A DNA stretch of 64,000 bases. Source: Cylicocyclus nassatus (Eukaryota; Nematoda; Chromadorea; Rhabditida; Strongylidae). Location: assembly GCA_958299035.1 (NCBI GenBank), contig CATQJL010000316.1:7844347-7908346 (forward strand), given 5' to 3'. The number at the start of each line of letters is the position of its first letter. The stretch's first letter is position 1. This document shows, in pieces, positions 25,308-54,035 of this stretch. The notes under the pieces are model-generated. The model was not told where the DNA came from. It made no database searches and worked only from the letters and a program-made list of their open reading frames with translations. The position numbers were made by a program, and so were the translations under genes.

Positions 25308-25405
25308 CTGACCGATCTACTTGTTGGTGCGGATTGAGAAGCCCCTATAGTGTTGTTTTAGATATGGTGGTTGTCACAACTTTGCTAGTCATTGCTTCTG
25401 TGTAC

Positions 25406-26191
25406 TTGGCGCCGTTGCGGCTGCTGTAGCTCTTGTATCGTTCGCTGTTCTGCTCAAATTGATTGTAATGGTTGTTGGCTTCTCAGTTTCCGTAATGTTC
25501 GCATCAGTAACAGTACTGCCAGCATCGGTTGTCGTTTGCTTTGACGAGGCTGCCACCGTTGTTGCTTCTGTAGAAGTTGTAATGCTCATCGTGCTATTCA
25601 CACTTGTTGGTTTCTCAGTTCTCGTAGTGTTCGCATCAGTAGCTGTGCTGCCAGCATCGGCTGTCGTTTGCTTTGACGAGGTTGGCACCGTTGTTGCTTC
25701 TGCAGAAGTTGTAGTGCTTGCCGTGCTTGTCACACTTGTTGGTTTCTCAGTTTTCGTAGTGTTCGCATCAGTAGCTGTGCTGCCAGCATCGGCTGCCGTT
25801 TGCTTTGACGAGGTTGGCACCGTTGTTGCTTCTGCAGAAGTTGTAGTGCTTGCCGTGCTTGTCACACTTGTTGGTTTCTCAGTTTTCGTAGTGTTCGCAT
25901 CAGTAGCTGTACTGCCACTATCGGTTGTCATTTGTTTCGGCGAGGTTGACACCGTTGTTGCTTCTGCGGAAGTTGTAGTGCTCGCCGTGCTTGTCACACT
26001 TGTTTGTTTCTCAGTTTTCGTAGTGTTCGCATCAGGAGCTGTACTGCCAATATCGGTTGTCGTTTGCTTCGGCAAGGTTGACACCGTTGTTGCTTCTGCG
26101 GAAGTTGCAGTGCTCGTCGCGCTTGTCACGCTTGCTGGTTCCTCGGTTTCCGCACCAGTAGATGTACTCCAAGCATTGGTTGTCGTTCCTT
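25406..26191 (-). CDS. Gene B, tandem-repeat mucin exon (262 codons)
   Basis: The 786-nt exon begins after acceptor gttttcag (26192-26193) and ends at donor gtacac; 2 + 261 codons + 1 gives phase 1 on both sides, matching the upstream gene B exons. About five tandem copies of a 132-bp (44-residue) unit fill it, with tctcag landmarks at 25481, 25613, 25745, 25877 and 26009. Each unit is Thr/Ser/Ala-rich and ends near TKTEKP. Dense Thr and Ser with Pro predicts a heavily O-glycosylated extracellular stalk. Copies differ by scattered substitutions, and copy number could vary between individuals. No structured domain lies in this exon. The long plus-strand open frame opposite it is a shadow. Confidence 0.75.
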
Positions 26192-27710
26192 CTGAAAACT
26201 TACAAATCTATAATCCAAGAAGTTCTGCAATCGGAATTATATGAACGCCTCACTATGTATTTCTCCTATTCAAGCAACAAAAACAACTTAAAACTGTTGA
26301 ATCTCTCGGAAAGCTTTAGGTAATTGTGTCACCTCTCTTCAATAATAACACCGCATTTGTCTTCCATTCTCGTAACTAAATCCGAAACTCCTAAGCCTAC
26401 AACTCGCCTTTCGTTTAGAGCCGTCACGGGCTGCTCAAACCCGGTATTGAAATGGTACCAAGTTTTGCTCGTTCTTCTTCAAAAAAGCGTAACATCCCGC
26501 AGAAAAAAAACTTAGTGTGAACTTTAAGCAAACTAAATGTAGGTCTTTTTATCCTACTATGTGTGATTGTAAACTTGTTGCACGTCATCTAATCAGTTCT
26601 GAAAAAATTATCAAAACTACGAGCCTTGTTTTTTATCATGCTCAACTTTCGCTATTTTCCTAAAACCCTGAACAAACTTCCGAAGTAGACCAAGCAGCTA
26701 TGGATAAAGGAAGGCCTTACAGAGTACGAAGCAATTTCTTTTTTTTCCATAACTCGCCATGCATTTCCAAAAATGATTTTTGTTCAAAGAAAATCAGCCC
26801 AACTCAGAGGCAAACAAGTCAAACGGTGATGAAATTTTTAGAAGTCGATCATGAAGATCATGAACTAAAACTAATTTCACAAAGCAAATGAACGTTCATG
26901 GTAACAAAGTGTGAAATGTCAAATTTTTTGGGTGCACCCTGGCGCGCGTTCAAAAACACGAGTTATGACGACTTTTTCCCGCAGACTTTACAAACTAAAG
27001 GAAGAAACGGAAAGAGGGAAAAAAGCATCGATTAACACTCAAGTTGCAGCCAGTCGATGATCTCTGAGATTTGTGTTGACCCGTGTATGGAATTTGATCA
27101 CCACAGATTTTGAAAATTTTCTGAAATAAGCTATATAAGAACACGGCAACAACTTGTTTTGTATGTATCCTGTAGGATCAGTTTTATTTATCTGCAATTT
27201 GGTTCTTCTGGGATATAATTTGAAAAAGTAGTGAAATTTGAGACCGGCAAGAACCATGAGTAGTAGTTTTTGGCAATTTTTTTTGAGAGCCATTGCTTAG
27301 TCTGCCACAGGGTTATAACATTCTGAATGGTGATGAAAAACTGCTCAAATATGCTTAAAAGCTTCTAATCTTTGTTTCGGTATTACTCTCGTTTGAAAAG
27401 AGCGAAATTACTTTTGGATGAAGGGAGCGAAAGCACTTGTGAGACAATTTTCGACCTTCTACCTTCGACGCTTTGATGGAAGAGCACCAAAGTAAAAGAT
27501 TGCTCTAAAATGTCAGGCATAAAGACCTATTGGAAAAAAGCATTGCAGTGAAATAACAGCAGCGCGAGGCTTTTCGAAGATTAGCTCACTGATTTAGTAT
27601 TAGTAAATTTGCTTGCTTGATAAAGATCAATTCAAATAAACAACGAAAATAAAAATGATAGACACGCTGAGATGTTTGCATGCAAGACAGAGACTAATTC
27701 AAAAAAGTTA

Positions 27711-34869: not shown

Positions 34870-35230
34870 TTAAAGGCAGTGTCCCGGCAGATTCGCATTC
34901 GAGGAGATACAGGTGTGGTGGTGTTCCTGGTCACCCCACTAACCTCCGCTCCCAGTCCGGCTGTTGATGTTTCGCCCACGCCGAGAAAATAGCCCTCGGC
35001 GCGCGCTCGAACGGCTTTGCTTGTCTGTTCGGCGCGGGACCCCGACCGCTCTCGCAATGTGCATGCTAACCAAGGCAAGACACAAGCGCCAGGTTCTTCG
35101 TGCCGGGCTTCCCAACGTTCCAATGAAAATCTCGTCCGAGCTGCTTTTTTGAAATTGCGTAAACGCCGCGAAATTGGTCTTTTCACCCCTTTCAAAGCTC
35201 AAATTCGGGTTCTACGTGTCGAAAAGGCCT
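34870..35230. repeat. TTAA-flanked repeat remnant, host site of the LTR element
   Basis: ttaa followed by aggcagtgtccc at 34870 matches the left end of the TTAA-type element at 56301 (aggcagcgtcca). A matching right end was not found, so this is probably a truncated copy. It runs to the LTR element, whose ggcct target duplication covers 35226-35230. Confidence 0.45.
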
Positions 35231-35500
35231 TGTGGTGGTTCAGTGGGTTTTTGGGGGACTCTTCGATGACTCAGCCAACACTTGGGGAGTAAGAATGTTT
35301 ATTGGAGTAAAAGTACAGCCGGCTCGTTCCGGCACACAACAGAGTGAAGAGTGAGGGGTAAAGTTGGCCAGCAGGAGGCTGGCCCTAACGGGCACAAAGA
35401 GTCCGCCAGATGGCGGATTCTTTGTGAAAAGTTTACGATGTAAACACAATGGTCACAAAGAGTTACAATTTGGGCATGGGGTCGTGTGTTTATCACGACA
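35231..35500 (-). repeat. 3' LTR
   Basis: Identical by eye to 45540-45809. On the coding strand it reads TGTCGTGA...CCACCACA. The poly(A) signal AATAAA is at 35298-35303 (complement of tttatt). Two small perfect hairpins are present: ggccagc/gctggcc (35366-35384) and tccgcc/ggcgga (35402-35417). Confidence 0.95.
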
Positions 35501-35511
35501 CTCCCCCCCAG
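35501..35511 (-). promoter_or_regulatory. Polypurine tract
   Basis: On the coding strand the sequence ctgggggggag abuts the 3' LTR, as needed for priming plus-strand DNA synthesis. Confidence 0.8.
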
Positions 35512-36060
35512 ACAAAAAATTAACTTTCCGAATGAGGAATTTTCTCATTCGGCATGATGAAAAAAAGGGAAAAACAGAAAAAAAAGGAAGGATGAAAAAA
35601 AAAGGGGAGGGATATTTCGCAATGGGTATAAGAACAGCAATAAACAGAGAAAATGATATGGAAACAGCAAAATTAACAACAAAATGTTACAAGGAGTTAC
35701 CAAAACATATAATAGAGGGGGGAAAGGAACGGAACAACAAAAAAAACTTGTCGAGCGGCCGAAGACTGGATGCGATGTTGAGGCGAAGGAGAAGTGGAGG
35801 GTACGTAGTTGCGGCGGAGTTGGGCTTGACGAACTGGAGAAGATCTAGATCAAGTATATTATTATTGAAATATATAATAAATCATTCCCTGCTGGGATAT
35901 ATGGGAATATTGAGTGGTACTGGATGCCATATTCGAGCTGATGCGTCAGAGCAGACGCATAGCAGACGCATATCGTCTTTCAAGGATTTGATTGACTGAT
36001 ATTTCATTTTTAGACTGATATGCTTAACGCGCGTCTGCTCTTGCGCAAGAAGATGTCACC
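35512..36060. promoter_or_regulatory. Non-coding segment between 3' LTR and antisense gene
   Basis: It contains a perfect 9-bp-stem hairpin (ccgaatgag/ctcattcgg, 35528-35552) beside the polypurine tract. There are also two tandem copies of agcagacgcat (35950-35971) preceded by atgcgtc, and an inverted copy gcgtctgct at 36031-36039. These 9-mers lie 30-120 bp upstream of the TATA-like box of the antisense gene and are candidate activator sites. A purine-rich plus-strand open frame (35364-35999) spans this segment and the LTR; I do not call it a gene. Confidence 0.5.
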
Positions 36061-36068
36061 CTGGCTGC

Positions 36069-36075
36069 ATAAAAG
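36069..36075 (+). promoter_or_regulatory. TATA-like box of the antisense gene
   Basis: ataaaag in the context gcataaaaggg lies 116 bp upstream of the plus-strand ATG 36185. An initiator-like tcttcagcc follows about 25 bp downstream (36091-36099). A pyrimidine-rich stretch then runs to tactctag (36164-36171), a likely spliced-leader or cis acceptor; it would remove a short upstream ATG at 36159. Confidence 0.6.
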
Positions 36076-36184
36076 GGTGATTAAGCCGCTTCTTCAGCCA
36101 TTTGCCTATTTCTTCCTTATTTTTTGCTATCTTTTTTTTCTTGCTTGGTCTTCCCTTATGTTGCTACTCTAGAGTTAACGCAAG

Positions 36185-36632
36185 ATGCCCGCTGTTAATG
36201 AAGTAGCGCCCGTGAGAAGTAACCAGGTGAGTAATTAAAGATATGTTCATCGCATTTCTTTTTACCTTGAGGGTTTTTGTGGCTAATTTGTGAATTAATT
36301 TTTATTTTTTATAATTACAGGACTTCATCGATAAGGACAGAGAAATCAATATGCTCCGTAGGAAACTGAATGCGGCCGAACGGGAAAGGGATGAGTTCAA
36401 AAAGGTAAGACATTTTTGTTCCATGTTGTGAATAATTTGATAAGTATTTTCTTTTTAGAGCGCCGAAGAGTTGACTGAGAAGTTGTCTAATGAGCGATGG
36501 ACGTCAAGGGCCAAACAAGCATGGTTGAAGAGGTCGATGGAGGACATGGCATTATTGGAAGCGGCTAACAATGCTCTGTCGAAGGCTATGTCCACCCTGC
36601 GACGTAACATCGGGGACGGCATTAATTCGTGA
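36185..36632 (+). CDS. Antisense spliced gene in the retrotransposon, 99-aa coiled-coil protein
   Basis: Three exons on the strand opposite to gag-pol-env: 36185-36226, 36321-36404 and 36459-36632. The introns (94 and 54 bp) start gtgagt and gtaaga and end attacag and tttttag, both phase 0. The joined frame is exactly 99 codons plus TGA. The protein has two runs of 3-4 heptad spacing: I23, L26, L30, A33, F40, A44, L47, L51, then L65, M72, L75, L82, M86, L89. It is rich in Arg, Lys and Glu, so a dimerising coiled coil is predicted; there is no signal peptide or membrane segment. A TATA-like box lies upstream and AATAAA (36706-36711) downstream. It converges on the 188-aa ORF, with 99 bp between the stop codons. 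I do not recognise a family. An antisense spliced coiled-coil gene recalls HTLV-1 HBZ in layout only. Confidence 0.75.
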
Positions 36633-36705
36633 TAGCTGTTTGTTGTTTATTGTAGTAAATATAGACATGTTGTGATTGTTATTGTAATGATAATAATGTT
36701 ATGAT

Positions 36706-36711
36706 AATAAA
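36706..36711 (+). terminator. Poly(A) signal of the antisense gene
   Basis: AATAAA 74 bp after the TGA, just before the stop codon of the opposing 188-aa ORF. Confidence 0.65.
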
Positions 36712-36731
36712 CATTATGGAACAATCTGTAA

Positions 36732-37298
36732 CTAGTGCAAAGACTCACCATAGCTAATTGGGTTGAGAGGTGGTCGGGAACATGGAATGAACGTTGGGGC
36801 TTTTACTGTAACCAGGATTTGGGTTTGATTAGTAGGTATAAGTTCTGAACCAACCTTTCGCCGTTTAAATGGCCCATTCTGTCCTCTGTTTGGGCATAGC
36901 AGGACGTTGTGCAGCCTGCCGCAAATGGGGCACGTTACACCACAATCTTCGTGGTGTTTCGGTTGAAGGCACCTTTCGCAGAGTCCAAGGGCTGACGCTT
37001 GCACTGCCCGCGACACAGCGTCGGGGAATTTGCAGCAACGTCCAGTCGGGTGTTGATCCTTGTTGTCTTCCACAGTGCAAAACATGCAATTTGACCTCGG
37101 GGTAGTCCTTTCCACCATAATAGTTAGCTGGTGGTGAATAATGGACCATCTCTCGCTCGTAGCTTGGACTGCTTGCATGATATTGTCGATCTTGGCATTA
37201 ATTGTTGACAGTCCGTTCTCCATCCGCTCCTTAATGTCTTTGAGGGCATCCGCTAGAGGTTCGATGTGCAAGGCGACGTCGATCTCGTCCATTGGCAT
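36732..37298 (-). CDS. Zinc-knuckle accessory protein downstream of the envelope (188 aa)
   Basis: A separate minus-strand ORF starting 152 nt after the polyprotein stop. Residues 10-62 show heptad spacing (L15, L19, I22, M26, I33, I37, I40, V44), so the N terminus is a likely coiled coil. Three zinc-knuckle-like motifs follow: C71-C74-H83-C88, C107-C110-H115/116-C119 and C123-C126-H130-C135. The 18-residue gap between the first two and the short gap before the third match the Gag block at residues 423-485, which suggests a copy of the Gag nucleocapsid on a new coiled-coil stalk. KRRKV at 145-149 looks like a nuclear localisation signal. A subgenomic spliced RNA would be needed; a weak acceptor (cacgtcag) lies about 18 nt before the ATG. 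RNA binding is inferred, and its precise role is unknown. Confidence 0.8.
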   Translation of the reverse strand: MPMDEIDVALHIEPLADALKDIKERMENGLSTINAKIDNIMQAVQATSERWSIIHHQLTIMVERTTPRSNCMFCTVEDNKDQHPTGRCCKFPDAVSRAVQASALGLCERCLQPKHHEDCGVTCPICGRLHNVLLCPNRGQNGPFKRRKVGSELIPTNQTQILVTVKAPTFIPCSRPPLNPISYGESLH

Positions 37299-37450
37299 TA
37301 GTTGTAGTGTTCAGGCTGACGTGAATTAGTCGAATGAGTATCGTTCATCAAAGTTTCTTGGTTCCACCCCTACCATATGAGATTGTTTATGTTATAAGAT
37401 ATGGGTATTGTGTACAGTGCTGATTATAATAGTGGGTCGGCCCCACTCTT

Positions 37451-40400
37451 TTAGTGCGTGGCGGCTCTGATACATTTGTATACAGTCTGAATAAACAACG
37501 CAGTTGTCTTCGCGATAATTACCGCGCAGATGTAGACTAATCTAGCGGGTGCAAAGATTAGTGCTGGTCCGAAGAAATATGTTATCACTGAGAGGATGGT
37601 TATTGATCCCAATATAACTGTGGTGACTTGCCAGTGTTTGCGGAGAGTATTCCAGATCGGTAAAATACTTGGAACTTTCCAGTCTGCAAACCAATCTTTG
37701 CGGGAATTTCTTAGTTGAGCGGGATTTTCGAACAACATGTGTTCCACAATGTCTGGTACAAAACTGAGTGTACCTGTAAGGTCAAATTTGATGGTCTTGT
37801 TGTTGCATTGCGCAACGCATGTTTCTTGCACAATTGCTTTTTGGAATTCTATTGCTAGTGCAGTTTCTTTTCCTTGCGAATCGCACTCTACTGAGAATGT
37901 GTGTTCCCCGCACTGGATTACAATCCATGCTCTTTCATTGGTTGTGCAACTGATGTTCACTTGAGCTCCTTCCTGACAGTCGTAGCATCCAAACACGCTG
38001 CTCGCGTTTAGTTTGCAATCTTGTTCAAGTAGATATTCTGCACTGTTCTTCAGTGAGCGGGATTCTAGCGATACGACTACTTCTCCTTGCATAGTTTTTA
38101 CGAAGAGTTCCTTATCTCGTTTTTGTAAGGAAGTGAAGGGAGTATGAATGGGAAATACATTTGTAATGTCATTTTTCACGTCTCTAATGGACATTTGAGG
38201 ACAGTGACATCTGATTGCTCCATTTGCGTCTTCGCATGAGCATATCATTTGGTTGGCGCAATTTTTGAAATCTTTAGCTGCTGATTGGTAAGTCGCGCAT
38301 TTAGCTGCTAGTTCGTATCCTTCTGGTAGAAGCAAAGCTTCCTTGTTTGATATTGCTATTTTTCTGTCTAGCATGGCAAAGTGCGGCGATTGTACCGAAA
38401 TTATCGAGATTTCTATTCCTTGAAATGCGTGTTTGATGTAAGGTGCGCTTGTAATCAAGGTTTCTTTTTCTTGGTTGTAGAGTGAAACTCGGACTTTCAA
38501 ATTCACCAACGGTTCCCACTTCAGACATGATACTACTTCGTAAATCTCTTCATTTCTTGGGATTTGTGTGACCCGATAAAACGAACAAGCTGGTAGCGGG
38601 AGAAAACAGCCGCAACCGAGTCCGCCGCATGAATGCTGACACCCGGAGTAGCCTGGAAACTGGTATGCTTTGCCAAGCTCTTTGATTGTCGTATTGACAG
38701 TTGTCTGCGAGCATTTGGAATTCACGCATGACCCTGCCTGCGAGCAACGTACAGTGCTAAATACTCTGGTCGTCGCATCTCTCGTAAAGTACAATGATCT
38801 TTTTGCACATCGCATTATCGTTGGATATCGTTCTACTTCAATTAGACCAACGGATTTATTGGCATGCATAATGTTGACGCAGAGTTTCAAATCCAATTCA
38901 TTGAATAGAATTTCTCTTTTGTACTCATAAGAGCAGCTGTTATGGCTGGTGCATATCAAATCGATTTCTTGCCGTATGTGGCCGTTTTGGCAGGCTACTG
39001 CCGCATCTGTTAATGCCAGTATGCATACGAGGGCAATGTTCACGGCTCTATAGATCGTCGGTGGACTAAATAATTCTAACCGCACACTTGCATTATCGCT
39101 TGTGTTAACGGTTACTTGTACGGGACGGATTAGTAACCTTTTTATGCAGGTGGAGAGCATAATAGTTGTTACAATAATCGCATAAAGCGCTAATCCAAGG
39201 GATGCTATGGCACCGTTTGGCCAACAATGTGGGTTTGCTAGTAGTTTTTTCGATAGGAATCCTTTCGAATGATCACATATATGTGGCTGTACGCAATATG
39301 CCTGTTCCATGATTTCTTGATCCTCCAGAAAGTACCTCATGGAGACAAACATGGTCTTATTTAATGCCGTTGGAGGTAATGACCACTCCCTTTGTGCGAT
39401 AGCCATCTTCGGAAAGGATCTACAAAGGCTTCCCATACATAGTTCGAATGTTGTGTTTGGATTGTTGATCTTAACATTGCCTTTTTCGCAAATTAATCTG
39501 TCGGATGCAGCTGGATTGATGAGGCATAATGCGGTGATAACTGAAAGCAACATCTGGCGTATTGGAGTTGATGCTCTGCTAAAGCCTTCGTCAGCTTCAT
39601 CCGATTCCTCCAAGCTTCGTTCAAAATTACGTATAATTGTTCGCGCATTTATCGTAGCTTGTCTCGGCGGCCGCCTCTGCGGGGGGTCTTGGTGACCTGT
39701 TGGCGGATTAGCAGCGTCGACACCTATGTCTGGCGGATTGCCGTTGTTATTCGCTCCATTATCATCTACGCCTGACAATTCGCCGTTATTGATCGTCGAG
39801 CATTCTACCTCGCTTTGTATTTCCAATGGATATATCGTGTTTAGTGGTCTATGACAAACATGTTTATTTGGTAGTAACACTTTTGCTGATCTGATTTGTC
39901 CATCTAGACTTTTCACTAATTCAATTACTTTTCCGTACGACCAGTTACCTCTGGGGAGATTCTCTTGTTTCATCAGCACTATTTCGCCGATAATTGGGTT
40001 TCGTAAGGGCACGTGGCGAGGTTGTTTGAGCGAAATTCGTTGTATTTCTCGCAGTGCAGTTAGATATTCTGTATTCCATCGTTCCCAAAATTTGTCAGCG
40101 ATTTCTTCGGAAGCTAACAAGGCTTGCTTAGCTTGCTGAGCTGTTTGAATTAACTCTGGGTCAAAGTCTAGATCGTTAGACTCGCCTTCTACTTGTGGTT
40201 CTCTAACATCAAATTTGATATTGGCCTGTAGGAAATCTACTGGACGTATTGGGATCTCAGAAATGTCGGTAAAATCTAACTTAGTGAGCGGTCTCGTGTT
40301 TATTATGGCTTCGATTCGAGCCATTGCTGTGCATAACTCGGTTAGATCAAGTCTGCGTCTGCCTATTGATTTTCGGAAGGCCATCTTTACTGTACCTATT

Positions 40401-43400
40401 AAGCGCTCCCAAGCACCACCCATCCATGGGGCTCCAGGTGGATTGAAAATCCACTTTATACCACAGTTTGCGCTGTAATTCATTACCGAAGCGCCTGTAC
40501 TCGGGTCTTTTTCATACATAATGTCCAATATTTGTTGACCAAGTCGGAAATTCGTGCCGCAATCTGTGCGTATAGTGCTGGGCACCCCTCTACGAGATAT
40601 AAATCTGATAAAACTGCTCAAAAAGGCTCCGGTTGACATATTTTCAACCACTTCCAAATGTATTGCTCGTATAGTAAGACATGTGTATAAGCAGATGTAA
40701 ACTTTTTCTTGGGTTTTTATCGTTATTGGTCCCATAAAGTCACAGCCCACTTTATCGAATGGTTTTGTTACAATTACTCTGTCTTGTGGAAGTGGTGGCA
40801 TATTTGGGGCGCCAAATGGTAAACCTTGCCATTTTTTGCAGTTTACACATCCTTTTAAGAACTTTTTGAATGCTCCTGATGGTTTCGGAATCCAAAAACG
40901 CTGTCGGGCTATCGATAATGTGTGTTCTTTTCCACAATGTGCGTTTTTCTCATGAATATCTCGCAATATTAGCCTTGCAAGGTCCGATTTCGGGTTTATG
41001 TATATGGGAGATTTAGTATCGTACGGTAATTGGGCATTTTGCAGCCGTGATTCATTACGAACAATACCGTCGCTGTCCCTGATAATCTTTTTGTTTGGAA
41101 ATTTCTTTTGTAACTTCTGTAATATTTCGTTTTTGTGTTGATCTGCGATTAACATTCGCTCACCCAGTTTCATGTCCTCGAATGTTATTTCTGTGTCTCT
41201 GTCGAACTGCGCGATTCGTTGCAACTGTATTTGAATTCCTCGATTTTCCCGGGTTTTGCTCACCCATAGTGCGATAATTTTACCAACTTTTGCCACAGTT
41301 CTTATGAGTTTATTCCACTGGGAGAATCGCGCTAGATCAACTAGATTATCGTTGTTCTCGACATCGGTTACGTCATCGATAACATGTGGCATGTGTATTT
41401 GCAACGGTTCCTCTTCCTCCTCAAACTCTTGAATCTCAGATATGTCTTTCAACTGTTTATATGGGCCTGATTGAGTAAGCCACTGCGGTCCCTCAATCCA
41501 ATCGATCTCTTGGATCTGTCTCGCAGTGACGCCGCGAGTACCAGCGTCTGCCGGGTTGTAATTAGTGGCGACATGGTGAAATTTGACCGCCACATTGCTA
41601 GATTCAAGGTCTTGTTTGAGTTTAAGTATACGTTCTCGTTGGTTCCGTACAAATACTGGAAGTTTTCGGTTCGATTTTAACCATGAAAGAGCAATTTCGC
41701 TGTCACTAACTATATGGATTTCTCGTATCGCTTCCGTAGCTGATTCACATATATTTTTCGCGAGACGGATAGCCATCAGTGTGGCCAATATTTCTAATCT
41801 TGGTATAGTTTGTATTGTTTTCTTTGGTGTAAGTCGTGTTTTCCCGCTGACTAATGCTGTTACTTGGCCTGCATACTTTTTGAAATAACTGCATGCCGCT
41901 AATGCCGAGAGACTGGCGTCCGCGAAGACCCAGAGATCGCAGAGGTCACGCTCATCTATGGCGGGCGCGTCATAATTAGAGCCGAGGTAACGCGTCACTG
42001 TGACTTCTACGTTATTGATTTCATTGCATGCTGTATTCCATTTCTTGGTTAGTTCTATGGGTAGAATTTGATTCCAATCTGTTCCTTGTTCATAGATTTC
42101 CCTCATAAGTGACTTAAGCTTTACGATTAGTGGTGCAGCTATACCAATCGGGTCATATATGGAGTTTAGTTGACTAACTATGTCTCTTTTTGTGAGATTT
42201 TCTTTCATGGGGAAGGTTATTTTTACACTAAATGCATCTGTGTGGGTATTATATGGTACTCCCAAGAACTTGATGTTTCCGCCTGGTGTTCTATCACTTT
42301 CGGGTATGTTTTTATTTACTGAATCCGAATTGGAAACAAATTCTCTCAAATTCATGCCTATTTCGGCAAAAAGTGCCTTTCCTTGGGAGTACTTTTGTAG
42401 CGCTTCCGCTGGGTTATTTGCAAATAAAAGTATATTATCTACATACAAATTTTTGATTATTTCTTGTGCAATTGGCGAGGTTTTGGAATTGAGGTAGGTA
42501 ACCAGCGCCATATTGAGGATACTTGGTGAGGCAGTTACGCCGAATGGAAGGCGATTAAATCTAAATTCCACTATGTTACTTTTTGTAAGTGGTAGATCTG
42601 GGTTTCTCAGCCACAGAAATCGACATAAATCTTTGTGTGTTTCCGTTAATCTAATTTGTGTAAATGCGGCCTCAATATCACAAAGTAAAATTATTTTGCT
42701 TGTTCGGCTAGCCACCAAAATATCGTGTATTTTAGTAACAAATGATTCTCCTTTGTGTATGACATCATTTAAAGAGAGGCATCTTTTTTGCTTAGATGAA
42801 GCATCAAAAACTATGCGCAACGGTTTTGCTTTGTTTTCGCGCCATACTCCTGAATGGGGCATGTAATATACTCCCGAGGCGTTTCTAATGTCATAGGTAA
42901 CTTTTTCAATGATGTTTTGTTCTTCGTACTCTCGGAAAATTTTGCAGTACCACTCCTTTTGCTTGGTGTTGTAACACAGCTGATTTTGCAGAGCAGCTAG
43001 TCTTCTGTAAGCAACCGCATAATTGTCCGTTAATTCAATTATATTGCTTTTGAGTGGAAATGGAGCGGTAATGTAGCCATTTTGGAAAATGATGTCCTTT
43101 GAGTAACTTTCGAAGTAGTCAAAAACTTCATCGTGTCGCGCATATTCGTTTTTTGATATGCCGAGCCCTTCCAGCTCAAACAGTTTGCTTAGTAGTTCAT
43201 TTTCTTCTTCCATTATGGCTGTCATTCCATAGATAACGTTTGTGGTTTCGTTTTTTCCATCAACTGACCCACGTCCGTATACTGTAGGTCCGAAAATCGT
43301 TCTTGCGATTCGAAGTCCCGATGGTGTAGTTGCGCTTTCCGGGGTTTCCAGAATGAAATTATAGTAGAGATCTAGTCCTACTAAGATGTCCGGATTTTGC

Positions 43401-45457
43401 ATCTCTCCTCTTAGTTTTGTATTCGCGATGCAGACCTCTTTCTTCTGTAGGAATTCCTTGTCTACGTTGTTTAGCTTGACTGAGGGGAATGCCTTCGTAA
43501 TGAACGGTTTCGTTTTTATAATAGTTTCCATGTCTTTTCCGTAAGCAGAACTGACTTTTATTGAAACAACGTTGCTTTCGAACATTTCGGTATGACCGCC
43601 GAGGCCAGACATTACGCATGTTTCTGTCTTCAGCTTAGGTAAGCCTAATTTCTGCGCCAGTTCTTCACGAATTACTGTTTTTTGCGCTCCGGTGTCGAAA
43701 AAGAAGAGCACCTTTTCGAAGTTTTCGGTGTTGTGGTTCCAAATCATCCCTTCAGCAGTCATTAGGACGATTTGCTCTCCTTTTTGGACATTAGCATCTG
43801 TTTTTTCTATGCCAAAATTCGCTTGGTTGGCTTGATTGGGTCGCGAATTCGTTTTATTTCTTTGGCGTAGATTGTACGGGGAGTTATTTTTCCAGTTCAC
43901 TTGTGGGCGCTCATCTGGTTTTTTGAAAGGAGCAGAATACTGTTTTCGAGCAGGTGGTTGTGATCTAGATATCCCACTTGAGCTCTGTTGTCTACTTGCA
44001 AAGCATAAACCAATGTGGTGTTGTCTACTGCAAGAGGCACAGTTCGGACGTTGACACTCCGAACTAAAATGTTTATTGGAGAAGCATTTCCAGCATAGTT
44101 GTTTTTCAATCGCTATATTACGTCTCGCTTGAATATCCGTAATAGTTCGGCAATTTGTTGCAAAGTGACCGCCTTTCTCACAAAATGCGCAAAGCGGACC
44201 ATTTATTGTTATTTGCGGGCTTTTTGTTTCTGCCGTTGGTTCGACTCTTTTTTGATGTACTTTCATCCGTGACTGCACATAGGTTTTTGCTGAGATTTCT
44301 TTTTCAATTTTTTCCATTATTTCCTCAACCGATACTTCTTCTTTGCTTTTGATCGCGATAAGCACGTTTTTGACTATATCGTACGGAAATTTTTCTAGGA
44401 TCATCTCTGTCCACATGGCGTCGTTCGTTTTGCGTATATCTTGACCTGCTGACACCATCTGGTTCACCAGCATCTGGATTCGGTCGAAGACGTGAGCGCA
44501 ACTTTCCGCTGTTTTGGTCGCTGGAGTAAGTAAGGTAAGTCTGTGGACTATTCTTGCCCTGTTTATTGGCTTATTGCCGTATTTCTTTTTCAATGCATCA
44601 ACCATCCATCCATAATTTTGTGGTATTAGCTGTATGCCTTTAATCGCATTGTCTGACTTTCCTCTCAAACTGTCCTTTAAAAACAACATTTTTTCCACTG
44701 TGCTAAGTGTGGTGTTCCTGTGCACTAACGTGTCGTAGATTGCCCAAAATTCTGGAAAATCCTCCTCCATCCCGTAGAACTTTGGCACTTCCAGTGCGGG
44801 CGTTTTCACATTGTTACAGGTTTGTATTTGTACCGTTTGTACTTGATTTGCCTCGGTGTTAACATTCCGGTTAGTTTGTATATTTGCATCGGTGCTTTCG
44901 TTCCGGTTTGTTTGTATATTTGTGTCGGCGCTATCATTGCTGTTTTCTGTTATCCATCCGTTATCTTCGCTGATTTCCTGCTGTTCATTATCGTTATTTT
45001 GAATAAAATTTCCATTTGTGACTGCTGTTGGATTTGGTTGCGTAGGTACAGTAAGTCCTAGTTTGCGTCCCAGTCTATTGCGGGTGCTAATGACTTCCGT
45101 AAGCCTTGCTCTGAGCATAAAAATTATTTCAGTTCCTGCTCCCAAAATTTCATTGAAGTTTGTGTCATCTTCAAGCTTCTCTAAAGCGTCGGAGAAGTCT
45201 TCTCTTTCGCCTGTATCTTGAATCCTCTCATATTCTTTTTTGATTTGAGCGACGAGCTTTATTAGCTCATCTTTTGCAACAATTACCTGGTATATTGCTT
45301 CGTTTATTAGATCAGCGGCTGCCTGACTTTCGTCGTAGGCTTTTTCGTCATCGGGGGGATACACTGGTTTTTTTGTGTAGTCCTTGAATGTGTTTATAAG
45401 TGTTTTTAGCGTCTTGGCGCTAATGGTGAGCGGATTTTTCAGCAACACCAATTCCAT
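37451..45457 (-). CDS. BEL/Pao Gag-protease-RT-RNase H-integrase-envelope polyprotein (2668 aa)
   Basis: One open frame from ATG 45457, 60 nt beyond the primer site. Gag (DUF1759-like, about 228-370) leads to three zinc knuckles (C423 to C485). The aspartic protease has DTGA at 588-591. Reverse transcriptase has YVDN at 1005-1008, a variant of the usual YVDD-type box. RNase H spans about 1175-1330. Integrase has an HHCC zinc region from H1502 and catalytic D1573, D1632 and E1684, followed by a DUF5641-like tail (about 1783-1874). The last 700 residues are envelope-like: signal peptide at 1969, hydrophobic helix about 2081-2105, a second signal-like segment 2137-2155, then a Cys-rich ectodomain from C2156. 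That ectodomain contains a Gly/Cys cluster (2273-2295) like the fusion-loop region of phlebovirus Gc (class II), and ends in membrane segments after 2612. Order and sizes fit known nematode envelope-bearing BEL/Pao elements. No envelope break is seen. Confidence 0.95.
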   Translation of the reverse strand: MELVLLKNPLTISAKTLKTLINTFKDYTKKPVYPPDDEKAYDESQAAADLINEAIYQVIVAKDELIKLVAQIKKEYERIQDTGEREDFSDALEKLEDDTNFNEILGAGTEIIFMLRARLTEVISTRNRLGRKLGLTVPTQPNPTAVTNGNFIQNNDNEQQEISEDNGWITENSNDSADTNIQTNRNESTDANIQTNRNVNTEANQVQTVQIQTCNNVKTPALEVPKFYGMEEDFPEFWAIYDTLVHRNTTLSTVEKMLFLKDSLRGKSDNAIKGIQLIPQNYGWMVDALKKKYGNKPINRARIVHRLTLLTPATKTAESCAHVFDRIQMLVNQMVSAGQDIRKTNDAMWTEMILEKFPYDIVKNVLIAIKSKEEVSVEEIMEKIEKEISAKTYVQSRMKVHQKRVEPTAETKSPQITINGPLCAFCEKGGHFATNCRTITDIQARRNIAIEKQLCWKCFSNKHFSSECQRPNCASCSRQHHIGLCFASRQQSSSGISRSQPPARKQYSAPFKKPDERPQVNWKNNSPYNLRQRNKTNSRPNQANQANFGIEKTDANVQKGEQIVLMTAEGMIWNHNTENFEKVLFFFDTGAQKTVIREELAQKLGLPKLKTETCVMSGLGGHTEMFESNVVSIKVSSAYGKDMETIIKTKPFITKAFPSVKLNNVDKEFLQKKEVCIANTKLRGEMQNPDILVGLDLYYNFILETPESATTPSGLRIARTIFGPTVYGRGSVDGKNETTNVIYGMTAIMEEENELLSKLFELEGLGISKNEYARHDEVFDYFESYSKDIIFQNGYITAPFPLKSNIIELTDNYAVAYRRLAALQNQLCYNTKQKEWYCKIFREYEEQNIIEKVTYDIRNASGVYYMPHSGVWRENKAKPLRIVFDASSKQKRCLSLNDVIHKGESFVTKIHDILVASRTSKIILLCDIEAAFTQIRLTETHKDLCRFLWLRNPDLPLTKSNIVEFRFNRLPFGVTASPSILNMALVTYLNSKTSPIAQEIIKNLYVDNILLFANNPAEALQKYSQGKALFAEIGMNLREFVSNSDSVNKNIPESDRTPGGNIKFLGVPYNTHTDAFSVKITFPMKENLTKRDIVSQLNSIYDPIGIAAPLIVKLKSLMREIYEQGTDWNQILPIELTKKWNTACNEINNVEVTVTRYLGSNYDAPAIDERDLCDLWVFADASLSALAACSYFKKYAGQVTALVSGKTRLTPKKTIQTIPRLEILATLMAIRLAKNICESATEAIREIHIVSDSEIALSWLKSNRKLPVFVRNQRERILKLKQDLESSNVAVKFHHVATNYNPADAGTRGVTARQIQEIDWIEGPQWLTQSGPYKQLKDISEIQEFEEEEEPLQIHMPHVIDDVTDVENNDNLVDLARFSQWNKLIRTVAKVGKIIALWVSKTRENRGIQIQLQRIAQFDRDTEITFEDMKLGERMLIADQHKNEILQKLQKKFPNKKIIRDSDGIVRNESRLQNAQLPYDTKSPIYINPKSDLARLILRDIHEKNAHCGKEHTLSIARQRFWIPKPSGAFKKFLKGCVNCKKWQGLPFGAPNMPPLPQDRVIVTKPFDKVGCDFMGPITIKTQEKVYICLYTCLTIRAIHLEVVENMSTGAFLSSFIRFISRRGVPSTIRTDCGTNFRLGQQILDIMYEKDPSTGASVMNYSANCGIKWIFNPPGAPWMGGAWERLIGTVKMAFRKSIGRRRLDLTELCTAMARIEAIINTRPLTKLDFTDISEIPIRPVDFLQANIKFDVREPQVEGESNDLDFDPELIQTAQQAKQALLASEEIADKFWERWNTEYLTALREIQRISLKQPRHVPLRNPIIGEIVLMKQENLPRGNWSYGKVIELVKSLDGQIRSAKVLLPNKHVCHRPLNTIYPLEIQSEVECSTINNGELSGVDDNGANNNGNPPDIGVDAANPPTGHQDPPQRRPPRQATINARTIIRNFERSLEESDEADEGFSRASTPIRQMLLSVITALCLINPAASDRLICEKGNVKINNPNTTFELCMGSLCRSFPKMAIAQREWSLPPTALNKTMFVSMRYFLEDQEIMEQAYCVQPHICDHSKGFLSKKLLANPHCWPNGAIASLGLALYAIIVTTIMLSTCIKRLLIRPVQVTVNTSDNASVRLELFSPPTIYRAVNIALVCILALTDAAVACQNGHIRQEIDLICTSHNSCSYEYKREILFNELDLKLCVNIMHANKSVGLIEVERYPTIMRCAKRSLYFTRDATTRVFSTVRCSQAGSCVNSKCSQTTVNTTIKELGKAYQFPGYSGCQHSCGGLGCGCFLPLPACSFYRVTQIPRNEEIYEVVSCLKWEPLVNLKVRVSLYNQEKETLITSAPYIKHAFQGIEISIISVQSPHFAMLDRKIAISNKEALLLPEGYELAAKCATYQSAAKDFKNCANQMICSCEDANGAIRCHCPQMSIRDVKNDITNVFPIHTPFTSLQKRDKELFVKTMQGEVVVSLESRSLKNSAEYLLEQDCKLNASSVFGCYDCQEGAQVNISCTTNERAWIVIQCGEHTFSVECDSQGKETALAIEFQKAIVQETCVAQCNNKTIKFDLTGTLSFVPDIVEHMLFENPAQLRNSRKDWFADWKVPSILPIWNTLRKHWQVTTVILGSITILSVITYFFGPALIFAPARLVYICAVIIAKTTALFIQTVYKCIRAATH

Positions 45458-45517
45458 CTTGCTTTGACAAGATGTACAGGATTTGACCTGTTAGAAAAAA
45501 TATCGGCGGGTTTTTGC

Positions 45518-45535
45518 TTCCCGGCCGATGCACCA
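45518..45535 (-). promoter_or_regulatory. Primer binding site, tRNA-Gly
   Basis: On the coding strand tggtgcatcggccgggaa is an 18-nt complement of the 3' end of eukaryotic tRNA-Gly(GCC), including CCA. It lies 4 nt inside the 5' LTR. Confidence 0.9.
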
Positions 45536-45539
45536 AAAT

Positions 45540-45809
45540 TGTGGTGGTTCAGTGGGTTTTTGGGGGACTCTTCGATGACTCAGCCAACACTTGGGGAGTA
45601 AGAATGTTTATTGGAGTAAAAGTACAGCCGGCTCGTTCCGGCACACAACAGAGTGAAGAGTGAGGGGTAAAGTTGGCCAGCAGGAGGCTGGCCCTAACGG
45701 GCACAAAGAGTCCGCCAGATGGCGGATTCTTTGTGAAAAGTTTACGATGTAAACACAATGGTCACAAAGAGTTACAATTTGGGCATGGGGTCGTGTGTTT
45801 ATCACGACA
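45540..45809 (-). repeat. 5' LTR
   Basis: Identical by eye to the 3' LTR. AATAAA on the coding strand is at 45607-45612, defining the R region. No clear TATA box for the sense transcript was identified. Confidence 0.95.
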
Positions 45810-52081: not shown

Positions 52082-53461
52082 TCAATGTATTCGGACCGCA
52101 CTGTTTGGAGTGGTCGAGGTCGCCTTCTTGGTGGTTGTTTTCGGCTCTCTAAACAAGATTGATGTCTTGGTTTTCAGCATGTCCAATAAAACTAACTAAC
52201 ACAATGGCTCTAACTATAGCTCTAATATGTGACTCATCGTAGTAGTAAGGGACTGATACTAATCTGCCGTCCCAAGGTAAGACTTCTTTTGGGTTGGTGC
52301 CTGAAAACGTCCTGTTTGATAGTTCGCTCTTAAATTAATGACAGTCGCTACCGAAATTTATACGTACCACTGAGGCCCACTGCCACGACATTACCAAAGC
52401 GGCTACTTAACGATGGGAGGTGAGTCGTACGATATCTAAAGTCATAACGTGTTATCATCAATTACTAAGAATCAAATTTTCAGCATAAGTATTTACTGAG
52501 CAGTACAAAACACCAAGCAATTGAACCGATGTTCCGTGTCATACATAGCATTCAAAGCATCAATGGCTCTGTAATTTCAAATTCTATCCAATCATCCAAC
52601 CATCTGAAAGTTGAAAGCTTGATTACTTTGCAGTATTCAGCGCACCATGAGTGAAGAAGTAAGTCATGTAATATAGTAGATTTCTAAATCCGGTGTAATT
52701 AGTGGCCGTCTTTATCTCTGAAGGTTCAACTTTTGTTGGTAAATACGTGTATCCGTATAACCATAAGCCAATGCGCGATGTGGGAAATTCGTCAAAGATG
52801 TCGTAGCCGAACTTCACCCAAAAGTTGAGATTCCTTAAACAAACTTATACTATACTAAGTGAGAGTGATCTCAGTACACACAAGATCGTAATCCCTCTGA
52901 CTCGAATCATAATTGTAGAGGTCGCCGACGAAAAGACAACTTATTTCGCGTGGACTTTCTGCAAGTGTTGCTATGAGACTGATATTTAGTAGTGAGCAGC
53001 GTTTCGTTCTTTGGAAGGTGCTCGTGATGATTTTACATGGTTTCACTATGTACATGCGCTTTGTGAGCGACACCCACCAGTAGTCGTGGATAGTGATGTA
53101 GTCGTAAGTAGTGATGTTGTTACATTATGTGTATAAAAACTCGTTGAATGAGTCGTCGTTTTAGAAATCGTTGATTGTTTAGGTGTCACGGTGGTCTTTG
53201 TTATGGGGTGGCGAGCTTAACAGAAAACATGAAATGAGACTATCCAGAGTAAGAAGCAAAACAAAGGAAATGAAGAATCACTTGCCAAACTCCGAGATCC
53301 TTCCAGGAACATCTTGCCCTACACCCACAGTATGATAGTAGTCTTGCTCGTATACTTCGGTTATTACTTTCGAGAACTGCGTGTTCGAGACAATCAGAAC
53401 TTGATCGCCTACTTCGGCTCTTTTTACTTCATCGACAAAGGCAACAACATCCAGATTTTTT
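52082..53461 (-). CDS. Gene C, seven 3' exons: vWA-like domain, Thr linker, second vWA-like domain, Thr tail
   Basis: Exons (right to left): 53461-53286, 53215-53078, 52958-52882, 52811-52627, 52435-52368, 52300-52201, 52148-52082. Phases run 2-1, 1-1, 1-0, 0-2, 2-1, 1-2, 2-stop without conflict. The first exon (LDVVAFVDEV, GDQVLIVS, HTVGVG) looks like the second half of a von Willebrand A domain. The next is a Thr-rich linker of about 45 residues. Exons 3-6 form a second vWA-like domain (CLFVGDLYNYDSS; RIGLWLYGYTYL; RFGNVVAVGLSG; a VLPW..VSV end). The last exon is a short Thr/Lys tail ending at TGA 52082. The donor of 53286 is a GC type (gcaagt). A secreted or membrane-anchored adhesive protein is inferred; the vWA call rests on strand patterns only. 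Confidence 0.6.
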
Positions 53462-54035
53462 CTGAAAGCTAGCTATTTTTATATGTACATATCTCACGTT
53501 TACATTTCTGCGCGGTGCAAAAGAATGAAAAAGCACATAGGTTTACAAAGAATTGAGCGGAATTACAAGTTAATTTAATTTCTGCGCAGACTTTTAGGGC
53601 ACATGGAAGGTAAGCAAAAAGTTTTTGAGAGCAAAGGAAGTAATCTCGTAGTAACATTGATTTTCGGAAATAATGAGTGATGCAAAGTGTATTTTGCTGA
53701 TAACCTATAGCGACATCTTTTTGGATAAGCTTAAAATATCACAACCAGATGGCAAAAGAAGCAGGCTGGGTTCAGAATGCGCGGCTTGCGAAGCACTACC
53801 GAAAAAGTCCGAGGACAAAGAGGACAGGATTAAAGACCATTCTATTGAGATCTACCGCAGCAGTTCTATAAAGCAGAGTAAAAGGTGTTACATTGCCGAA
53901 TGGGGATTGCGAAGAAGTATGGCTGTAAGGTGTTGGAGTGAGTAACTTGTAACAGAAGTCTGCGAGGGAGAGTGCTATAAGCAATATGTAATCCTACACC
54001 CAAAGCAAGCCACTGCAATGCAAATACGTATAGCT

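What the first reader, a model, noticed from the sequence alone, without database searches (positions are those of the whole stretch)
36069..36711. A complete antisense spliced gene inside a BEL/Pao retrotransposon
On the strand opposite to gag-pol-env, just inside the 3' LTR, everything for an independent gene is present. There is a TATA-like box (36069), a pyrimidine-rich leader with an acceptor-like site, three exons with good nematode splice signals and phase-0 introns, an exact 99-codon frame with heptad repeats, and AATAAA 74 bp after the stop. Chance is unlikely to give two spliceable introns that preserve one frame plus a coiled coil. Known analogues are the antisense genes of deltaretroviruses (HTLV-1 HBZ, spliced, coiled coil, near the 3' LTR); I know of none described for BEL/Pao. 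It could regulate the sense promoter, pack with Gag, or suppress competing copies.
Basis: partly seen in the sequence, partly recalled or inferred. Interest (0 to 1): 0.93.

Follow-up and report, generated by a model that had tools for sequence, protein, structure and literature searches.

The report
Antisense gene inside worm retrovirus-like element
A retrovirus-like element in a horse-parasite worm carries, on the strand opposite to its other genes and hidden inside one of their introns, a small spliced gene for a coiled-coil protein that selection appears to have preserved across several of its lineages.

Summary
Confirmed: three exons, phase-0 introns, 99 codons, AATAAA 74 bases past the stop, antisense inside a young BEL/Pao element (35230-45809, minus strand). 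The genome matches Cylicocyclus nassatus. It is very probably a real gene. A database protein of that species differs by one residue. Six copies encode the 99-aa frame intact. A seventh, in an element with LTRs only about 80% identical, encodes a 126-aa homologue (33% identity) with the same exon phases, also in the database. In exon 3 of six diverged copies, 9 of 12 computable pairs have dN/dS at most 0.24; three do not. Eleven other copies are broken or truncated.

Three sibling elements lack exactly this intron (one also lacks a second): they look like copies of spliced RNA.

Best reading: a spliced antisense accessory gene nested in a sense intron, probably acting in trans, like HBZ or plant Grande gene23 in layout but not by homology. 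No RNA or protein data were available; function is inferred. A new variant of a known kind; my paper searches found none described in BEL/Pao.

The parts
35230..45809 (-). BEL/Pao (belpaovirus-like) element with Phlebovirus-G2-type Env
   Evidence: 271-bp LTRs 100% identical; GGCC on both flanks; Pfam domains searched in four pieces
45539..45809 (-). 5' LTR
45518..45535 (-). primer binding site, tRNA-Gly-like
   Evidence: sequence; tRNA identity recalled, agrees with the tRNA-Gly option in the ICTV profile
37451..45490 (-). gag-pol-env polyprotein frame, 2679 aa stop to stop
   Evidence: frame; DUF1759, aspartyl protease, RT, Peptidase_A17, integrase, DUF5641, Phlebovirus_G2
36735..37301 (-). 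ORF2: sense accessory protein with a conserved Cys/His pattern and KRRK motif, relatives in other strongylid nematodes
   Evidence: no Pfam family
35845..36748 (-). sense-strand intron B (904 nt, TATG|GTGAGT ... GATCTAG|ATCTTC) that encloses the whole antisense gene
   Evidence: exactly absent in L073, L074, L075; donor seen in 16 of 18 copies, acceptor AG in 15 of 18
36041..36097 (+). putative antisense core promoter: TTGCGCAA 36041-36048, CATAAAAG 36068-36075, initiator-like TCAG 36094-36097
   Evidence: positions; recurrence across copies; function inferred
36185..36226 (+). antisense gene exon 1 (14 codons)
36227..36320 (+). antisense gene intron 1, phase 0
36321..36404 (+). antisense gene exon 2 (28 codons; 62 codons with in-frame repeats in L015)
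36405..36458 (+). antisense gene intron 2, phase 0
36459..36632 (+). antisense gene exon 3 with stop
   Evidence: constraint on exon 3 of other, diverged copies
36706..36711 (+). antisense poly(A) signal AATAAA
35230..35500 (-). 3' LTR

Best explanation
It is a genuine protein-coding accessory gene of a belpaovirus (BEL/Pao) lineage. It has its own TATA/initiator-type promoter on the strand opposite to gag-pol-env, is spliced through two introns, and encodes a small (99-126 aa) mostly coiled-coil protein. The whole transcription unit lies inside a 3'-terminal intron of the sense transcript: unspliced sense RNA carries it to the next generation, spliced sense RNA removes it. Shown from sequence: gene structure, its conservation and constraint, and use of the sense intron (intron-loss copies). 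Inferred: promoter use, and that the antisense RNA is made and translated in the worm. Most likely function (inferred, about 50%): a trans-acting oligomeric regulator of the element's own expression, as HBZ is for HTLV-1. The nesting probably lets both strands yield mature mRNAs with little overlap.
For: A C. nassatus database protein matches over 99 of 99 residues with one difference; copy L004 carries that residue. The 126-aa frame that I predicted in L015 is identical, 126/126, to database protein P0013. Splice motifs are the same in L001-L006, and phases the same in L015. In L001-L006, 8 codons vary, 5 synonymous and 3 not, p 0.013 against site counts, not corrected for descent. Exon-3 dN/dS is 0.07-0.24 in 9 of 12 computable pairs; medians in the two wrong frames are 0.78 and 1.98. 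Carrier elements are young: LTR pairs 271/271, 269/269, 269/269, 272/272, 269/270. Precise loss of sense intron B in L073, L074 and L075, and of intron A too in L074; sense splice sites recur across copies.
Against: No RNA or protein data. No homologue found outside C. nassatus, although ORF2 relatives were found in other strongylids. The database proteins may be purely computational gene models. Eleven of 18 copies are broken or truncated. Five of the six copies used for exon-3 dN/dS are themselves broken; three pairs (L010-L011, L010-L015, L011-L015) give 0.66-0.82, no lower than one or both of their wrong frames, and three more pairs are saturated. Three gene-less copies integrated, so the gene may not be needed in cis. 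No domain match reaches a curated cut-off.
Confidence: 0.72

Rival explanations
1. The antisense RNA, not the protein, is what matters: antisense transcription inside the intron interferes with sense splicing or makes dsRNA with unspliced sense RNA, tuning or silencing the element.
For: Antisense transcripts with regulatory roles are known for LTR elements, and dsRNA effects are proposed for antisense ORFs in plants (PMC7264820, passages). In Strongylida, antisense LTR-derived small RNAs are enriched among exWAGO guides (PMC13195028, passages). The transcription unit lies inside an intron.
Against: Codon-level constraint, in-frame repeat changes in exon 2 and kept phase-0 splice sites point to a protein.
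Confidence: 0.15
2. A captured host gene fragment carried as a passenger, with no function for the element.
For: Third-position G+C is 0.61 against 0.38-0.42 in the polyprotein pieces and 0.53 in ORF2. The segment can be absent.
Against: No host parental gene found: the only matches outside element loci were three weak ones (31-35% identity, E 0.16 or worse), with no element similarity around them; one search listed none. Intact frames sit in two diverged young lineages, with constraint in exon 3.
Confidence: 0.1
3. An accidental frame and splice-site coincidence (artefact).
For: Some copies carry frameshifts, lost splice sites or lack the segment.
Against: 1 of 2000 shuffles; the diverged homologue with the same phases; dN/dS by frame; two distinct database gene models reproduce the structure.
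Confidence: 0.03

Closest known systems
HTLV-1 HBZ and other deltaretrovirus antisense genes
   Same: Antisense to gag-pol-env, towards the 3' LTR, with a spliced form and a bZIP (helical zipper) protein (PMC10186651, passages)
   Different: No sequence relationship or bZIP match seen here; the putative promoter here is internal with a TATA-like box, not in the 3' LTR; here the gene is nested in a sense intron
Antisense additional ORFs (aORF-3R) of plant Ty3/gypsy elements: Grande gene23, Retand TRP28, PvRetro13 SMC; also fungal Boty
   Same: Between pol and 3' LTR, antisense, present in many copies; Grande gene23 has its own promoter upstream (PMC7264820 and PMC11963269, passages). Retand antisense ORFs include one Mis12 match; P0013 has a weak Mis12 match, E 0.0038, below cut-off and probably just coiled coil
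   Different: Different superfamily and hosts, no shared family above cut-off; 'intron' does not occur in the Retand paper's main text; no nesting in a sense intron in the passages read
Atlas virus, endogenous belpaovirus of the hookworm Ancylostoma ceylanicum
   Same: Single Gag-Pol-Env polyprotein with phlebovirus-like Env and identical 271-nt LTRs (PMC9094657, passages)
   Different: 9204 nt against 10580 here; 'antisense' and 'ORF' do not occur in that paper's main text. Whether it carries ORF2 or an antisense gene could not be tested
Genes nested in introns of host genes (general)
   Same: A gene inside another gene (PMC13309782, search listing and start of abstract)
   Different: Here both genes belong to one mobile element, whose unspliced RNA is presumably the genome copied at the next jump

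Membership tests
Belpaoviridae (BEL/Pao elements) | LTRs, PBS, Pao-type protease/RT/integrase order, Peptidase_A17 domain | tested here: met
[quoted passage not shown]
Antisense additional ORF between pol and 3' LTR (aORF-3R) | Present in many copies of the element family | tested here: met
   18 places carry it or remnants, 7 with an intact frame; of 14 further ORF2 places examined out of 151 listed, 3 close siblings lack it by intron loss and 11 more distant ones show none
Antisense additional ORF between pol and 3' LTR (aORF-3R) | Shared TRP28 or SMC domain with the plant proteins | tested here: not met
   no such Pfam match at E up to 0.1 or 0.01
HBZ-type deltaretroviral antisense gene | bZIP domain with basic region | tested here: not met
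   only weak matches, mostly to coiled-coil models, below cut-offs; no bZIP match
HBZ-type deltaretroviral antisense gene | Expression from an antisense promoter, nuclear protein that dampens sense transcription | not testable with these tools
   No RNA or cell data
Expressed protein-coding gene | Purifying selection on the joined frame | tested here: met
   three of 12 computable exon-3 pairs do not show it, and five of the six exon-3 copies are broken elsewhere
Expressed protein-coding gene | Spliced transcripts observed | not testable with these tools
   No reads held

The most novel reading that the evidence does not exclude
The element places an antisense regulatory gene inside a sense intron so that sense and antisense mature mRNAs share almost no sequence. 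A retrovirus-like element could thus express both strands in an animal with strong RNAi, while splicing versus retention of that intron decides whether RNA serves as mRNA or as the genome that carries the regulator.
Probability: 0.3. Interest if true: 0.9.

Novelty: new variant of a known kind. Interest (0 to 1): 0.8.

Why it matters
Antisense accessory genes are documented in deltaretroviruses and in plant and fungal LTR elements; my searches found none for BEL/Pao. [quoted passage not shown] The nesting inside a sense intron offers a testable solution to expressing both strands of one element in an RNAi-proficient host, and the gene-less intron-loss copies are natural controls.

Tried and rejected
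Chance frame: rejected. Host gene capture: no parental gene found in the own genome. Homologues in solved structures: none convincing for the antisense protein or ORF2. Viral contig scan with the protein: 3 pattern matches, none confirmed. A trans-splice acceptor in the leader was considered and dropped because it is not conserved. The antisense gene was looked for beside 11 more distant ORF2 copies (L076-L086, chosen from 151 listed): no homologue, only two short hits in L086 at E 0.025 and 0.086; L076 and L077 look, by eye, too short between ORF2 and a presumed LTR to hold it. In one search, L012, L013, L016, L017 and L069 were left out of the exon-3 comparison for indels, stops or absence, and group I (L001-L007) because its exon 3 does not align well; in L010 the final stop codon was skipped. 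Papers opened without use for the argument: PMC8220671 (passages) and PMC11118728 (no hits for my terms).

Full report
1. Setting. The window is G000:C316:7844347-7908346 of a 514.7-Mb assembly. The contig lengths of C112 and C316 (89,099,805 and 93,436,948) equal those listed for Cylicocyclus nassatus proteins, a strongylid nematode (horse host recalled). The species is thus inferred. The element spans 35230-45809 on the minus strand, with identical 271-bp LTRs and GGCC on both sides. One frame of 2679 aa carries DUF1759, aspartyl protease, RT, Peptidase_A17, integrase, DUF5641 and Phlebovirus_G2 matches, searched in four pieces. It resembles the Atlas virus of a hookworm (PMC9094657, passages). 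Downstream of Env lies ORF2 (36735-37301, minus), with invariant Cys/His positions and a KRRK motif. Ten database relatives outside the window are 51-58% identical; nine carry species names, all strongylids by recall, one has no name.

2. Observation. The antisense gene is as described. Exon and intron composition differ sharply. Its codon usage scores +0.11 bits per codon against the polyprotein model, above the other five frames of the joined sequence but below the polyprotein mean of 0.25 and within the maximum of flanking windows (0.21), so this test alone is weak. The two-intron model is rare in shuffles: 1 of 2000.

3. Copies. Three genome searches gave 18 distinct places, after merging L008 with L018 and setting aside three weak protein matches without element similarity (L070-L072); counts are lower bounds by the tool's statement. 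Seven hold an intact frame: L001 (window) and L002-L006 (99 aa), and L015 (126 aa). Eleven are broken or truncated: L007 (11-bp deletion in exon 2), L009 (promoter and start of exon 1 lost, acceptor changed), L010-L013, L014 (exon 1 donor lost), L016, L017, L018 (exon 2 largely lost), L069. None of these eleven showed an unbroken ORF2 plus Env end in the stretch fetched: stops or frame changes in ORF2 or the Env end in L009, L012, L013, L017, L018, L069; only part of ORF2 matched in L010 and L011; neither matched in L014 and L016; L007 has ORF2 without a stop but only about 50 bases beyond it match. Among intact carriers, L002 is itself an element fragment, and the stop seen in ORF2 of L003 falls just after the RRK residues, so it need not be damage. 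Carrier elements are recent: own LTR pairs 271/271 (window), 269/269 (L004), 269/269 (L006), 272/272 (L015), 269/270 (L005); L003 has one mismatch and a 22-base gap; no far LTR was found in the stretches fetched for L007 and L018, and none was sought for L002.

4. The diverged homologue. In L015 the ORF2-Env side (36853-38400) is 97.8% identical to the window but the LTRs about 80%, so its 3' module comes from another lineage. Its antisense protein is 33% identical over 106 columns (E 3e-13 in a two-sequence comparison without composition correction). Exon lengths are 42/186/153 against 42/84/174, with both introns phase 0 and similar splice motifs. Exon 2 is longer by in-frame repeats of a coiled-coil unit. 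I predicted this frame; one search shows that it equals the database protein P0013 over 126/126. A third database protein, P0014 (100 aa), ends with the exon-3 sequence of L014 and starts inside exon 2.

5. Selection. Within L001-L006, 8 codons vary, 5 synonymous and 3 not, against about 21% synonymous sites (p 0.013; not corrected for shared descent). In a 32-codon block of exon 3 from six diverged copies (L009, L010, L011, L014, L015, L018; only L015 intact), 15 pairs were compared. Three are saturated at synonymous sites; 9 of the other 12 have dN/dS 0.07-0.24; three (L010-L011, L010-L015, L011-L015) have 0.66-0.82, which is not lower than one or both of their wrong frames. Over the 15 pairs the wrong frames run 0.33-2.4 (median 0.78) and 0.5-4.14 (median 1.98).

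6. The sense intron. Of 151 ORF2 matches listed (150 of 363 candidates scored) I took 14 further places. L073, L074 and L075 carry LTRs and flanks but no antisense gene. Their junctions are exact. The window sense strand reads TATG|GTGAGT ... GATCTAG|ATCTTCTCC, and L073 reads TATGATCTTCTCC. L015 reads AAGTCCG|GTGAGT ... GATCTAG|ATCTTC, and L074 reads AAGTCCGATCTTC; L074 also lacks the small intron A after the KRRK codons, and its joined sequence then reads KRRKN-stop, the end seen in P0011 of another species. L075 has the same upstream exon joined to a slightly different downstream exon; its intron A lies outside the stretch fetched. So 35845-36748 is a spliceosomal intron of the sense transcript, and these three look like copies of spliced RNA. 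The two different upstream exons suggest at least two events, unless recombination fell exactly at the exon junction. Their LTR pairs are 268/269, 271/271 and 265/269. Each may be a first-generation product, so this does not show that gene-less lineages propagate. A donor was found in 16 of 18 copies (pattern fitted to the sequences seen; not in L014 and L016). An acceptor AG at the aligned place was found in 15 of 18 (not in L002, truncated, L009, and L010, which does not align there). Lengths were 859-905 in the 8 copies measured. The longest sense stop-to-stop frame within the window's intron is 63 codons. The 11 other places (L076-L086) showed no homologue.

7. Promoter. A TATA-like box with ATAAAA is kept in 13 of 18 copies (TATAAAAG in L010, L011, L017); it is altered in L018, L069, L012 and L013 and lost in L009. 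An initiator-like TCAG 28 nt downstream is kept in 11 of 18. A TTGCGCAA palindrome, a C/EBP-type consensus by recall, precedes it. Promoter use is inferred.

8. Mechanism. Shown from sequence: structure, constraint, intron-loss copies. Inferred: antisense transcription, translation, oligomerisation (heptads), and action in trans. My best guess is an HBZ-like negative or timing regulator. The nesting would keep spliced sense mRNA free of complementarity to the antisense mRNA, which may matter in a clade where antisense LTR-derived small RNAs are enriched among exWAGO guides (PMC13195028, passages); unspliced sense RNA would still pair with it.

9. Known and new. [quoted passage not shown] passages), and in retroviruses (PMC10186651; passages). 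The ICTV profile of Belpaoviridae (whole text) names gag, pol and env only. Searches whose listings showed no BEL/Pao antisense gene: (no papers); these cover open-licence papers only, and I opened few of the papers listed. Hence a new variant of a known kind.

Noticed in passing
window 36735-37301 (-): ORF2, a sense zinc-knuckle-like accessory protein with a KRRK motif, has relatives in other strongylid nematodes and 151 listed matches in this genome, with no Pfam family.
   Followed up: partly
L015, L006 (G000:C112): The 3' module and the Env side have different histories: L015 has a near-identical Env side with diverged LTRs and antisense gene, L006 a near-identical antisense gene with LTRs about 81% identical. 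Recombination between lineages is likely.
   Followed up: partly
L074 (G000:C112:12018800-12020700): Two introns removed at once, strong sequence evidence that spliced BEL/Pao RNA is reverse-transcribed and integrated.
   Followed up: yes
L002 (G000:C112:62560856-62564497): An intact antisense gene sits in a fragment whose alignment to the element runs only from 35993 to 37005, beside an inverted LTR piece.
   Followed up: no
L015 exon 2: Exon 2 is longer by in-frame tandem copies of a coiled-coil unit of about 17 residues.
   Followed up: partly
window 25351-26244 (+) and 25389-26207 (-): Long open frames on both strands over the same stretch, no Pfam match at E up to 0.01.
   Followed up: partly
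window 52811-53573 (+): Another place with a two-intron model of 104 codons in the control scan; possibly a real gene.
   Followed up: no
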